Positions 17,440-20,852 of a stretch of 64,000 nt of DNA are shown here, one piece after another. The first letter of the stretch is position 1, and each line of letters opens with the position of its first letter. Origin of the DNA: Falsiroseomonas oleicola (GTDB lineage: Bacteria; Pseudomonadota; Alphaproteobacteria; Acetobacterales; Acetobacteraceae); assembly GCF_019029495.1 (NCBI RefSeq), contig NZ_JAERQM010000006.1:15115-79114 (forward strand). Reading direction: 5' to 3'. The position numbers and the translations under genes were made by a program. The notes below the pieces were generated by a model. It did not search any database. It saw nothing but the letters and a program-made list of their open reading frames with translations, and was not told the origin of the DNA.

Positions 17440-18216
17440 GCCCGGCCGGAGGAGCCGAAGCCCCGACTGGTGCGCTGCCATATCCGCCTGGAACGCGTGA
17501 GTTTCCGCTACCGCATGGACGGGCCGCGGGTGCTGGAGGGGGTGGAGCTGGATATCCCGGCCGGGCAGGTGGTGGGGATGGTCGACCCCTCCGGTTCGGG
17601 CAAGAGCACGCTTACCAAGCTGATCCAGCGGCTCTACGTGCCGGAAGCCGGGCGGGTGATGGTGGATGGGGTGGATTTGGCACTTGTGGACCCGGCCTGG
17701 CTGCGCCGGCAGATCGGCGTGGTGCTGCAGGAAAATGTGCTGCTGAACCGATCGGTTCGCGACAATATCGCGCTGGCCGTGCCGGGGGCGCCGATGGAAG
17801 CTGTGGTGCGCGCGGCACGGCTGGCGGGCGCGCATGACTTCATCCTGGAACTGCCGCATGGCTACGACACGGAGATTGGCGAACGCGGGGCGACCCTGTC
17901 CGGTGGGCAGCGGCAGCGCATTGCGATTGCGCGAGCGCTGATGGCGGAGCCGAAGGTGCTGATTCTGGACGAGGCGACGAGCGCGCTGGATTATGAAAGC
18001 GAGCGGGTGGTGCAGGAGAATATGCGCGGCATCGCGCGGGGCCGGACGGTGATCATCATCGCGCATCGGCTGGCCGCGGTGCGGGGGGCAGACCGGATCA
18101 TCACGGTGGAGCGTGGGCGGGTGGTGGAGGATGGGACGCATGAGGAATTGGTGCGGAATGGGGGAAGGTATGCCGATTTGCTAACATATCAAAATAACAT
18201 GGATGGACAGACTTAA
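17440..18216 (+). pseudogene. 5'-truncated HlyB-type type I secretion ATPase (NBD only)
   Basis: From about [13 protein letters not shown] to LLTYQNN this is the nucleotide-binding domain of an HlyB/LapB-type type I secretion exporter: [46 protein letters not shown] and [14 protein letters not shown]. The membrane and peptidase-like domains are missing, and upstream DNA belongs to rpiB on the other strand. The Walker A reads [10 protein letters not shown] where GxxGxGKST is expected, losing the first Gly. GTG 17470 could start a short product, but it would be a soluble NBD alone. I call it a relic. Its tail runs into the AT-rich island and overlaps the next frame. Confidence 0.8.
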
Positions 18217-18949
18217 CGGCAATCTGCTAGCGGAACTGCTAATGGAGTCAATAACACACATCGGTCCAACCCAGGCAGGCAGGTCAAAAAATACACCACG
18301 AGAAAATTTGCGAGCCCAAATTCGCCCGCTTTCAGATGATAAACCAGGCTTAATTTTAGCTGAATTGAAAGGCAACGATATGACGTCCGCGCAAAACAAA
18401 GACGACTGGGAAAATCTACAGCTTTGCAGAATCGCAAAAGAATACCCAGATTTTTTTGCTGAAATCGCCACGAAAGTGAATGGGCATATACAGAGCAAGA
18501 ATTCCGTATTTGGCATCCTCAGACCCGAACTTGCTCACGTCCTGCGTTTAGTCGGCATAAAAAAATCACTTAGCATGCGTGAACTGGTGCTAGCAGCCTT
18601 TCTCGTGAAGGATTTGCTTGAACGTGCTTTGGTCGGCGAAGAAGTTTTTGACATTAGGCGAAAGTATTTCGCAAATTCATCTAGTAACTCAAATCCAGCA
18701 CCCGGCAGACTCGCCCATTTGTCCAAGGACGATGTTTTGCGCGTTGCCTCAAGTGCCCTGAGCAAGTCGCAAGAGCTGCTCGATCCGAATCTAAAAAACT
18801 CTGATAAAAAAATTATTGAGGCGGTTGATCGCTGCATGACTGATTTAGGTTTTTCGCTTGGGGCACAATCCTCGATCACGGCGATTCAGACTGTACGCAG
18901 CGCACGTGACCTTTGGATCGAAGTTATCTCAAGAGATGAATTTTCCTGA
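18203..18949 (+). CDS. Unknown AT-rich gene beside PIN-Hint chimera
   Basis: The open frame encodes up to 248 residues. ATG 18203 overlaps the hlyB relic's stop; ATG 18380, after GAAAGG, would give a 189-residue protein and may be the true start. The product is mostly helical and charged, with hydrophobic stretches such as [20 protein letters not shown] and an Asn/Ser-rich linker ([12 protein letters not shown]). No domain is recognised. Base and codon use (many A/T third positions) are unlike the neighbours. It lies 34 bases before the chimeric PIN-Hint gene on the same strand, so it may be a partner such as an immunity or antitoxin protein. That is inference only. Confidence 0.6.
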
Positions 18950-18983
18950 CGCGCGAAATCAACGATTTTGGCAGGAGGGCCTA

Positions 18984-20612
18984 ATGTTCCAAATCAACGT
19001 ACCGGTAAATCTTGCAACACGTTCCCCGTCCGCGAATCTAATCGTCGACACTAACTCTCTTAAAAGCCTTGCCCTAATCGGGCAAGTTAATAGAAGCCTT
19101 GGAAGTATTCGACCATTGGATTTACTTCTACAAACGGGAAGAAGATTCGTCATGACTGATGTCGTGGCAGCCGAGATCACCTCAGCTTTACACATACCTG
19201 AGAACGCCATCATTGCTGCCTGGATGTCCTCACGCGCAGATCAAATCAGCATCGTAAACACTCGAAACGCGGATGGAACACAACGGTTCTCAGGCCTTAA
19301 TGCCGGCGAAGAATCGATGCAGTGGTACGCCGCAAATAACTCCGCTTTAGATAATTTATTACTTTCCGATGATCGCCGCAGCTTTCCGCCTTTTGCGGCA
19401 GCATCAATGAATGGTCCGTTCGGAACGGTGGCTTGGCAGCCTGCTCCGCTAGAAGGCGTTTCTGCGGGCGTAATGGGAACAGTAGACTTTCTAAATGGAG
19501 CGGTACTTGCAGGCATAACCACACCACGGGAGCACTTGCGGCTTGTTGATGGACTTGCATCGAGCGGCCGCGTTGGGCCGACTGGTGAAGTAGGCTACAT
19601 GAATGCTCTCCGCCCTGGCAATGATCCGATATTTCTGGAAGTCATGACTCCGCATGGCTTGCAAGTAGGACTCGTAGAATTTTTGGACGGAATTTTCACC
19701 GACACGATAGTGGCCATCTACACCACACCGGACGGCGTTCAACATATGGTTGGTCATCCGTTCCAGCGGATAGGTCTGGTAGATGGAGAGTGGGTTGCAA
19801 ATCCAAGGGCGGTCATAACACGCAATCCGCAACCACCTAAATGCTTCCTCCCTGGCACCCCCATCCTCATGGCCGACGGCACCCACAAACCCATCGAGCA
19901 GATCCGCATCGGTGACCTCGTCATGGCCTTTGATCCCGCCTCCCAGCACGGCCGCGGCGCCCTCACCCCCTCCCGCGTCACCCGCACCTTCCAGAACACC
20001 ACCCGCACCGTGGTAGATCTCCGCGGCCTGCGCATGACGCCCGGCCATGTCTGCCTCACCGGCGCGGGCGGCTTCGCCACCATCGCTGCCATCCTCGCCG
20101 CCGATGGCACCCTCGTGCAGGCCGATGGCACTGCCATCCGCGCCCGCACCGGCGCCGGCCTCGGCTCGGCCGAGGATGCGCTGGTCCGCGTCGCCTACAC
20201 CGATCCCGCCACCGGCGCGCCGGGTTACGTCACGCTGCGCGCCGGCATTCCCTGTGCCACAGATGGCCTCACCCTCGCCGCCGTGCTCGCCGAGTCCGGC
20301 TACACCACCCTGGCCGATGGCGGCGTGCGCGTGACGGATGGGGAGGTCTTTGACTGCGTCGATTGGCCCGTCGGCACCACGCCGCTGGATGCGCCGGAAC
20401 AGCGGAACTGGATCGTCCTCGGCCCGGATGGCCAGCCCTACACGCCGGACTGGATGCAGGGGCTGGAGGAGGAGGCCGGAATGGAACAGGCCGTCGGCGC
20501 CACCACCCGCACCCTGGCGCCCAGCACCCGCCCGGCCTTCCGCCCTCAACTCATTGGCGGCACCCTCTCCGGCCTGCCCGCCATCGGCAGCACCATCGGC
20601 CGGATGCACTGA
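18984..20612 (+). CDS. Chimeric PIN-nuclease-like + Hint domain protein
   Basis: ATG 18984 follows AGGAGGG (18973-18979), a strong ribosome binding site; length 542 residues. Residues about 17-135 follow the PIN nuclease layout: LIVDTNS (D22), TDVVAAEITSA (E64), AGEES (E109/E110), LLLSDDRRS (D129/D130). Residues about 135-285 are unrecognised. A Hint (hedgehog/intein) domain begins at C287 (CFLPGTPILMADGTHKPIEQ) and includes TPGH (T352, H355). It resembles Hint modules of alphaproteobacterial RTX/type I secreted proteins. The DNA is AT-rich up to about 19840 and very GC-rich after it, the switch falling at the Hint cysteine. There is no signal peptide. It sits between hlyB and hlyD relics. 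A self-processing toxin-like protein is a hypothesis, not shown. Confidence 0.75.
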   Translation: MFQINVPVNLATRSPSANLIVDTNSLKSLALIGQVNRSLGSIRPLDLLLQTGRRFVMTDVVAAEITSALHIPENAIIAAWMSSRADQISIVNTRNADGTQRFSGLNAGEESMQWYAANNSALDNLLLSDDRRSFPPFAAASMNGPFGTVAWQPAPLEGVSAGVMGTVDFLNGAVLAGITTPREHLRLVDGLASSGRVGPTGEVGYMNALRPGNDPIFLEVMTPHGLQVGLVEFLDGIFTDTIVAIYTTPDGVQHMVGHPFQRIGLVDGEWVANPRAVITRNPQPPKCFLPGTPILMADGTHKPIEQIRIGDLVMAFDPASQHGRGALTPSRVTRTFQNTTRTVVDLRGLRMTPGHVCLTGAGGFATIAAILAADGTLVQADGTAIRARTGAGLGSAEDALVRVAYTDPATGAPGYVTLRAGIPCATDGLTLAAVLAESGYTTLADGGVRVTDGEVFDCVDWPVGTTPLDAPEQRNWIVLGPDGQPYTPDWMQGLEEEAGMEQAVGATTRTLAPSTRPAFRPQLIGGTLSGLPAIGSTIGRMH

Positions 20613-20618
20613 CCGCGC

Positions 20619-20852
20619 ATGCGCCGCATCCTCGCCATCCTGCGCCACAGCCTGGTCCTGGAGCGTGCGGCGCGCGGCCGGCCGCGGCCGAATGCGGAGG
20701 AACGGGCCTTCCTGCCCGCCGTGCTGGAAATCACGGAGACCCCACCCTCCCCCACCGCCCGGATCCTCACCTGGGCGCAGGTCGGCTTCTTCGTGATCGG
20801 CCTCGTCTGATCCTGGGTCGGCCAGGTGAATGAGGTGGCGGCGCCTTGCATT
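20619..20852 (+). pseudogene. HlyD-type membrane fusion protein remnant
   Basis: The 63-codon frame from ATG 20619 ends in RAFLPAVLEITETPPSPTAR and a hydrophobic helix TWAQVGFFVIGLV, the N-terminus of HlyD-family adaptors. The next codon is TGA (20808-20810), where Trp is expected. Reading on in the same frame gives [11 protein letters not shown], the usual continuation after the membrane helix, before similarity stops at about 20852. So one nonsense codon plus loss of the whole periplasmic part destroyed it. It starts 6 bases after the PIN-Hint stop. Confidence 0.8.

What the first reader, a model, noticed from the sequence alone, without database searches (positions are those of the whole stretch)
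17440..20852. Type I secretion locus broken apart around a PIN-Hint chimera and an AT-rich gene
The order is hlyB NBD remnant, AT-rich unknown gene, PIN-Hint gene, hlyD N-terminal remnant, all on the plus strand. In intact T1SS loci hlyB and hlyD are usually adjacent. Here AT-rich DNA begins exactly at the end of the HlyB frame (about 18180). The HlyD start appears 6 bases after the Hint gene. I infer an original hlyB-(Hint/RTX protein)-hlyD locus invaded by foreign DNA that supplied a nuclease-like N-terminus and a partner gene, after which the exporter decayed. This is the most likely new system in the window.
Basis: partly seen in the sequence, partly recalled or inferred. Interest (0 to 1): 0.85.

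Follow-up and report, generated by a model that had tools for sequence, protein, structure and literature searches.

The report
Stranded swappable toxin-like cassette
The locus looks like a stray copy of a modular bacterial weapon in which the front half of an exported protein and a neighbouring small, probably protective gene are swapped, while the back half, a self-cutting domain, stays the same.

Summary
The layout is as described: hlyB 3' fragment, AT-rich gene, two-part Hint gene, hlyD 5' fragment. The story of a resident exporter that decayed is not supported. In 11 of 14 other genomes of the genus the flanking genes lie within 300 bp of each other, so the 3.4 kb arrived as one fragment cut at both ends. 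Relatives with longer exporter genes keep the order (L016, G305). In 20 proteins picked by their Hint module, N-termini are unrelated in 189 of 190 pairs, and the AT-rich minimum lies at partner plus N-terminus in 17 of 20 loci, 2.7 expected. Against L016, homology stops at 18173 and resumes at 19842, the Hint cysteine. Best reading: a polymorphic toxin-immunity system of reversed polarity, toxin in front, Hint plus export signal behind, on type I secretion; the window holds a displaced orphan. Toxicity, immunity, cleavage and export are inferred; 16 of 20 loci have no near-full exporter gene nearby. The PIN call failed four kinds of test. Ten literature searches showed no description of this class.

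The parts
17459..20841 (+). Inserted fragment as a whole (span of exporter homology at both ends); left junction somewhere in 17387-17466, right junction about 20842-20857
   Evidence: Flanks are near neighbours in 11 of 14 other genomes of the genus; host homology by blastn to 17386 (G195) and from 20842 (G195) or 20857 (G369); G195 likeness to about 17466 read by eye
17459..18216 (+). hlyB 3' fragment: nucleotide-binding domain only, no membrane domain; the part shared with L016 and G095 ends at 18173
   Evidence: TIGR01846 453-693/694; 90 % nucleotide identity to L016 over 17459-18173
18174..19841 (+). Variable AT-rich cassette (GC 48 %) between the hlyB 3' end and the Hint cysteine codon
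   Evidence: Against L016 homology ends at 18173 and resumes at 19842; against G095 18173 and 19836; GC
18203..18949 (+). Partner gene, candidate immunity gene (248 aa from 18203, 235 aa from ATG 18242); no hydrophobic segment; no homologue in the searches made (Pfam, NCBIfam, PADLOC, PHROGs, PDB, plasmids, the other partners); not searched in the genome collections
18973..18978 (+). AGGAGG Shine-Dalgarno-like site 5 bases before ATG 18984
   Evidence: Sequence
18984..19841 (+). Variable N-terminal domain, 286 aa; candidate toxin, PIN-like by motif only
   Evidence: 24 % identical to the L110 N-terminus, E 1e-4 for the single comparison; no family or fold match
19842..20150 (+). Hint core, residues 1-103 of the module, Cys1 at 19842-19844 and the TPGH motif
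20151..20612 (+). Conserved C-terminal part of the module (confident to about residue 219) and low-confidence tail ending in Met-His; candidate export region
20619..20841 (+). hlyD 5' fragment, in-frame stop at 20808-20810
   Evidence: 80 % nucleotide identity to the hlyD that follows the Hint tail in G305

Best explanation
A polymorphic toxin-immunity system of reversed polarity that uses type I secretion. The exported protein has an exchangeable N-terminal effector domain and a constant C-terminal carrier made of a Hint autoprocessing domain plus a tail. A small exchangeable gene directly upstream protects the producer. Because T1SS substrates carry their export signal at the C-terminus, the constant carrier sits there and the toxin sits in front. 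Hint would act as in Hedgehog: Cys1 makes a thioester with the preceding residue and frees the N-terminal effector. Partner plus effector are replaced together between two constant arms (hlyB 3' end and Hint 5' end in the Roseomonas-type loci), most simply by homologous recombination, which explains the AT-rich step. The window holds one such cassette that was cut out of a hlyB-X-Hint-hlyD operon and landed between rpiB and a methionine-lyase-type gene, so it has lost its own exporter; it may survive as an orphan immunity/toxin pair or use another exporter. Shown: conserved carrier, variable N-terminus and partner, edges of homology, insertion, Hint fold and motif. Inferred: toxicity, immunity, cleavage, T1SS export, exchange by recombination.
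For: N-terminal parts related in only 1 of 190 pairs at E 1e-3, while the carrier parts are related in 190 of 190 (the proteins were found with the carrier as query, so the second number is partly by construction). N-terminal GC below Hint GC in 19 of 20. GC minimum at the cassette in 17 of 20 loci, 2.7 expected (the band of -900 to +800 was set by me after the layout was known; misses L108a, just outside, L108b and L110, whose minimum lies in its partner array). Same-strand ORF of at least 99 aa ending within 62 bp of the first effector ATG, or overlapping it, in 13 of 19 loci with upstream sequence (14 if the GC-rich frames before L108b are counted). Effector and partner both related in L106/L199 (77 % and 70 %). 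L110, the only relative found of the window's N-terminus, has three tandem partner paralogues. Both window-type N-termini have partners without a hydrophobic segment; L102, whose N-terminus is a Pfam cell-wall hydrolase above cut-off (PF07486, 35.5 against 27 bits), has a partner with a signal-like segment. hlyB and hlyD matches near the Hint gene in L102 and L103, hlyB in L016, hlyD in G305. Edges of homology. Hint fold.
Against: Only 1 of 20 N-termini matches a curated toxin-like family above cut-off. No partner tested has a known immunity family (8 partners). Co-variation is seen in 1 of 3 pairs with related effectors: in G095/L015 and window/L110 the effectors are related but the partners are not by blastp. 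4 of 15 carrier genomes (G095, G476, G479, G643) lack a HlyB of this subfamily at E 1e-100, and 16 of 20 loci have no near-full hlyB or hlyD match. No RTX repeats in 22 of 22, so export is not shown. No control search for HlyB in non-carriers was run. A closely spaced upstream gene on the same strand is common in bacteria, so 13 of 19 alone is weak. The left edge may partly reflect that the last codons of hlyB are not conserved anyway: in G399, where hlyD and not the partner follows hlyB, homology also ends at 18174.
Confidence: 0.67

Rival explanations
1. Domain-shuffling secreted enzymes, not weapons: the Hint carrier exports and releases varied N-terminal enzymes or adhesins, and the upstream gene is a chaperone or surface anchor, as FrpD is for FrpC.
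For: FrpD binds the N-terminal domain of the type I-secreted RTX protein FrpC, encoded in one operon, and FrpC self-processes (PMC5233953, abstract and start of introduction). 19 of 20 N-termini have no family hit above cut-off.
Against: The partners differ from each other as much as the N-termini do; tandem partner paralogues in L110; the AT-rich, bounded cassette is typical of exchanged toxin-immunity modules (recalled).
Confidence: 0.22
2. Decaying resident exporter locus: hlyB-Hint-hlyD stood at this place, was invaded by foreign DNA and lost its exporter.
For: Truncated hlyB and hlyD, stop in the hlyD fragment.
Against: rpiB and lyase hits within 300 bp in 11 of 14 relatives; two others (G231, G344) hold other genes there; in G356 the flanks are on different contigs; exporter homology ends at the junctions.
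Confidence: 0.06
3. A mobile intein-like element: the Hint part is a remnant intein or homing element and its N-terminal fusions are accidental.
For: Hint fold shared with inteins; weak hits to Hom_end_hint, intein and homing-endonuclease models.
Against: No invariant Asn and no C-extein in the 22-row alignment; the same carrier with unrelated N-termini in 20 proteins.
Confidence: 0.05

Closest known systems
Classical polymorphic toxins with HINT (Zhang et al. 2012, PMC3482391; passages seen)
   Same: Constant trafficking part, variable toxin part, HINT as autopeptidase beside the toxin, immunity genes.
   Different: [quoted passage not shown] Here the variable part is N-terminal, before Hint, and the exporter linked in some loci is T1SS. 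In the held 300,000 of 357,715 characters 'T1SS' and 'type I secretion' occur 0 times, and PIN domains are said not to appear to be used in polymorphic toxins.
X-T4SS effectors of Xanthomonadales (X-Tfe/X-Tfi, XVIPCD; PMC6759196, passages)
   Same: Closest logic: N-terminal toxin (glycohydrolases, proteases, phospholipases, nucleases), constant C-terminal delivery domain, small upstream immunity gene.
   Different: Other secretion machine; no Hint in the passages seen; XVIPCD was not searched for here.
FrpD/FrpC of Neisseria (PMC5233953, abstract and start of introduction)
   Same: T1SS protein with an N-terminal domain released by self-processing and a partner protein from the same operon.
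   Different: RTX protein, Asp-Pro cleavage by another module; no cytotoxic activity seen according to that paper.
Cdz of Caulobacter (PMC5380434, passages)
   Same: Alphaproteobacterial T1SS weapon with an immunity gene.
   Different: Small glycine-zipper proteins (84-86 aa); no Hint in the passages seen.

Membership tests
Polymorphic toxin systems (as described by Zhang 2012) | One constant carrier with many unrelated effector domains | tested here: met
   Carrier 190/190, N-terminus 1/190 pairs (carrier similarity partly by construction)
Polymorphic toxin systems (as described by Zhang 2012) | Variable toxin at the C-terminus | tested here: not met
   The variable part is N-terminal in the 20 proteins compared; so it is not filed as a classical member
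Polymorphic toxin systems (as described by Zhang 2012) | Cognate immunity gene next to the toxin | tested here: inconclusive
   Tight upstream partner in 13 of 19 loci; co-variation in 1 of 3 pairs with related effectors, tandem array in L110; no function tested
Polymorphic toxin systems (as described by Zhang 2012) | Effector domains are known toxins | tested here: inconclusive
   PF07486 cell-wall hydrolase above cut-off in 1 of 20; the others without a hit above cut-off
Hint/Hog superfamily | Hint fold with Cys1 and TxxH | tested here: met
   [not shown]
Intein | C-terminal Asn and C-extein for splicing | tested here: not met
   No invariant Asn in alignment A5 and no further domain behind the tail
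T1SS substrate | Encoded with its ABC exporter and adaptor | tested here: inconclusive
   hlyB and hlyD in L102 and L103, hlyB in L016, hlyD in G305, pieces in window and G095; no near-full match in 16 of 20 loci
T1SS substrate | Uncleaved C-terminal signal that drives export | not testable with these tools
   Low-confidence tail and terminal His in 15 of 21 are descriptive only
RTX protein | GGxGxD nonapeptides | tested here: not met
   0 of 22
PIN domain | Match to PIN profile or fold | tested here: inconclusive
   No match; failed model; motif only
X-T4SS effector | C-terminal XVIPCD and VirD4 recruitment | not tested
   Family considered from passages of PMC6759196 only

The most novel reading that the evidence does not exclude
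A previously undescribed delivery class of polymorphic toxins in Alphaproteobacteria: type I-secreted, toxin at the N-terminus, immunity gene upstream, a Hedgehog-like Hint domain releasing the toxin from a constant C-terminal carrier, and cassettes exchanged between fixed arms in hlyB and Hint; the window's N-terminus would be a PIN-type nuclease, a fold reported in 2012 as apparently not used in polymorphic toxins.
Probability: 0.48. Interest if true: 0.82.

Novelty: new variant of a known kind. Interest (0 to 1): 0.7.

Why it matters
If right, it adds type I secretion, a very common exporter, to the delivery routes of swappable antibacterial toxins and explains why the polarity must flip: the export signal at the C-terminus forces the toxin to the front. 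It gives a search key (the constant Hint carrier) that pulls out effector and immunity candidates, 19 of 20 of the effectors without a family hit above cut-off, and it would put a Hedgehog-type cleavage to work in bacterial competition.

Tried and rejected
Resident-locus decay: not supported, because of the short spacer in relatives. PIN fold: four kinds of test gave nothing (Pfam and NCBIfam; PDB sequences, 72, 73; hhalign, 76; AlphaFold2, 69), so I keep it as a motif only. The muramidase-like look of the N-termini of G095/L015 and L018 and the HEMMH peptidase motif of L017 are recalled motifs: L018 had only a weak SLT hit (E 0.037, below cut-off) and weak PDB rows; NCBIfam gave nothing useful for ten N-termini; phmmer with the L102 hydrolase-type N-terminus found nothing in the PDB; one search shows only that G095 and L015 are related.

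Homologues of the window's N-terminus: none in plasmids or viral contigs, and among 299 genomes of the phylum only the window itself; the whole protein found none in genome contigs and, in 150 genomes of the family, only Hint-region matches besides itself. Partner: none in plasmids; genome collections were not searched with it.

Rows dropped before counting. Of the 26 loci, L014 is the same contig as G095, L015-L019 were used, and L020-L039 (20 loci, which match no more than the first 95 residues of the module) were left out after looking at the Hint ORF of 7 of them. Of the 30 matches listed one is the window and 13 were used; 16 were left out: L111 and L113 (frames without Cys1) and 14 others, weaker, cut or in very large frames. 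Hint hits in viral contigs (80 kept of 101) were not studied. L198 and L199 were added only where said. The 20 proteins are therefore a chosen set, those with the full module (L016 is cut by its contig end). Further family and order searches found the module in 2 of 23, 2 of 27 and 1 of 17 genomes, the centre genome included, so it is sparse.

The binomial value printed is no proper probability, as the modules are related; I use only the count. No HlyB control in non-carriers was run (cap reached). The Foldseek search itself was not done, so the fold result rests on the VIA-align second look and the sequence hits. An earlier count said that the flanks are neighbours in 14 of 14; the recount gives 11 of 14 within 300 bp. 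After the recount I lowered the main confidence from 0.70 to 0.67 and the novel case from 0.50 to 0.48, because co-variation holds in only 1 of 3 pairs and the left edge has a simpler explanation.
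Full report
What is there. The plus strand carries a HlyB nucleotide-binding-domain fragment (best model TIGR01846, positions 453-693 of 694), an AT-rich ORF 18203-18949, an ORF 18984-20612 whose second part is a Hint domain, and a HlyD-like start at 20619 that stops at 20808-20810. GC falls from about 66-75 % to about 45-53 % between about 18.2 and 19.7 kb and returns in the Hint part. The ORF at 18984 has AGGAGG five bases upstream.

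It is an insertion. A DNA search of the 15 genomes held for the genus finds the left flank (rpiB side) and the right flank (lyase side) in the 14 others. In 11 of these 14 the two hits lie on one contig 101-282 bp apart (differences). In G231 (1,884 bp) and G344 (910 bp) the spacer is longer; blastn finds no exporter or Hint DNA in it and its ORFs, read by eye, are other genes. In G356 the flanks are on different contigs. By blastn host homology runs to 17386 (G195) or 17371 (G369) and resumes at 20842 or 20857; in the alignment the G195 likeness can be followed by eye to about 17466. HlyB homology begins at 17459 (L016) and HlyD homology ends at 20841 (G305), so the fragment is cut inside both exporter genes. 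The Hint module occurs in 2 of the 15 genomes: the window's and G095, whose contig length equals that of the Roseomonas mucosa MAG contig L014. G095 has its copy between minD and another gene, with a hlyB 3' piece of about 200 bp and no hlyD match behind it.

Relatives with longer exporter genes. L016, a 3 kb contig filed as an Opitutaceae MAG and about 90 % identical to the window in hlyB and Hint DNA (perhaps a misbinned Roseomonas-like contig), has hlyB running into its membrane part, then another AT-rich gene, then another N-terminus on the same Hint, to the contig end. G305 (same family) has the Hint tail followed by a complete hlyD frame (ORF of 486 codons from the first possible start); its hlyB lies on another contig that ends inside the gene. 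In G399 (L102) hlyB and hlyD matches, partner and Hint gene stand in a row; in G729 (L103) hlyB and hlyD are divergent from partner plus Hint gene. No single contig showed all four genes in the window's order.

A modular family. From (26 loci; 13 of 385 genomes of the class at E 1e-12, the window's included) I took the proteins with the full module: window, G095, L015-L019, L100-L107, L108 (two), L109, L110 and L112, 20 in all; the rows dropped are listed under Tried and rejected. Carrier parts are similar in 190 of 190 pairs, partly by construction, since they were found with the carrier; N-terminal parts in 1 of 190 (G095/L015). Window and L110 N-termini give E 1e-4 in a single comparison. 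The N-terminal part is AT-richer than the carrier in 19 of 20 (exception L107). In 20 loci (L198 and L199 added, L016 and L109 left out for short contigs) the lowest-GC 500 bp fall within -900 to +800 of the effector start in 17, 2.7 expected.

Partners. In 13 of 19 loci with upstream sequence a same-strand ORF of at least 99 aa ends within 62 bp of the first effector ATG or overlaps it (14 with the GC-rich frames before L108b); in L015, L017 and L105 the gap is 139-266 bp, L101 has only a 57-aa ORF, L019 has none nearby. By a simple hydrophobicity scan 13 of 16 such partners (the 13 plus L015, L017, L105) have a signal-like or membrane segment; the three without are window, L108a and L110. 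Partners are unrelated to each other at E 1e-2, apart from L106/L199 and the three tandem paralogues in L110. L106 and L199 also have related effectors. Against the model, the other two pairs with related effectors (G095/L015, window/L110) have partners without blastp similarity, though both partners of the first pair are hydrophobic and both of the second are not. L102's N-terminus is a cell-wall hydrolase by Pfam.

Edges. Against L016 the window matches over 17459-18173 and again from 19842; against G095 over 17968-18173 and again from 19836. Base 19842 is the first base of the Hint cysteine codon. The exchanged unit therefore runs from the hlyB end to the Hint cysteine. Two cautions: the window match with G399 also ends at 18174 although another gene follows hlyB there, so the last hlyB codons may simply not be conserved; and the match with G729 hlyB ends at 18150. 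In L106/L199 partner, effector and much of the carrier are alike while a middle stretch of the carrier differs, so the carrier may recombine too (inference).

Mechanism. T1SS signals sit at the C-terminus (established knowledge), so a constant C-terminal carrier and a variable N-terminal effector is the expected mirror image of classical polymorphic toxins. HlyB of this subfamily (E 1e-100) is found in 11 of 15 carrier genomes, the window's remnant counted. G095, G476, G479 and G643 lack it, and 16 of 20 loci have no near-full hlyB or hlyD match, which speaks against strict linkage.

The window copy. Cut off from its exporter, it is either an orphan that still gives immunity, or it uses another exporter of the genome: other ABC transporters with 42-51 % identical NBDs are present. 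Both ORFs are open and the Hint Cys and TPGH are kept.

PIN. Not confirmed. Pfam and NCBIfam, PDB sequences (72, 73), hhalign with 18 PIN sequences from relatives (0.5 % against 0.04-0.84 % for 18 controls) and AlphaFold2 give nothing. Only the recalled motif is left, partly conserved in L110.

Literature. Searches of the held open-access library listed no paper that, by title and start of abstract, describes type I-secreted proteins with N-terminal variable toxins and C-terminal Hint; three listings were capped (20 of 27, 25 of 149, 20 of 173), and subscription papers and bioRxiv are not held. I opened five papers: passages of PMC3482391, PMC12487129, PMC6759196 and PMC5380434, and abstract with the start of the introduction of PMC5233953. 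Zhang 2012 places toxins at C-termini and HINT before them. The X-T4SS effectors are the nearest logic.

Noticed in passing
L016 (JAIXVP010000400.1): 3 kb contig filed as Opitutaceae MAG is about 90 % identical to the window in hlyB and Hint DNA; probably misbinned or a recent transfer.
   Followed up: partly
L110 2718-4914: Three tandem paralogues (56-75 % identical) of the partner gene upstream of the only relative found of the window's N-terminus; looks like an immunity-gene array.
   Followed up: partly
L108 5559-6746 and 6830-8914: Two convergent Hint-carrier genes with different N-termini side by side in one genome (G607).
   Followed up: no
L201 1-10101: hlyB-hlyD of the same subfamily stand near a giant frame with a Hint match (9464-aa open frame), so the exporter may serve large substrates too.
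   Followed up: no
L200 3-1880: A gene with glycine-rich GGxGxD-like repeats (RTX-like by eye) is divergent from hlyB in G305.
   Followed up: no
20499-20612: Carrier tail ends in -H in 15 of 21 relatives, often -TLH or -TIH; meaning unknown, possibly part of the export signal.
   Followed up: partly
20151-20498: A conserved stretch of about 116 residues behind the Hint core is confidently modelled, but the rows shown cover mainly residues 1-103; its fold was not searched alone.
   Followed up: no
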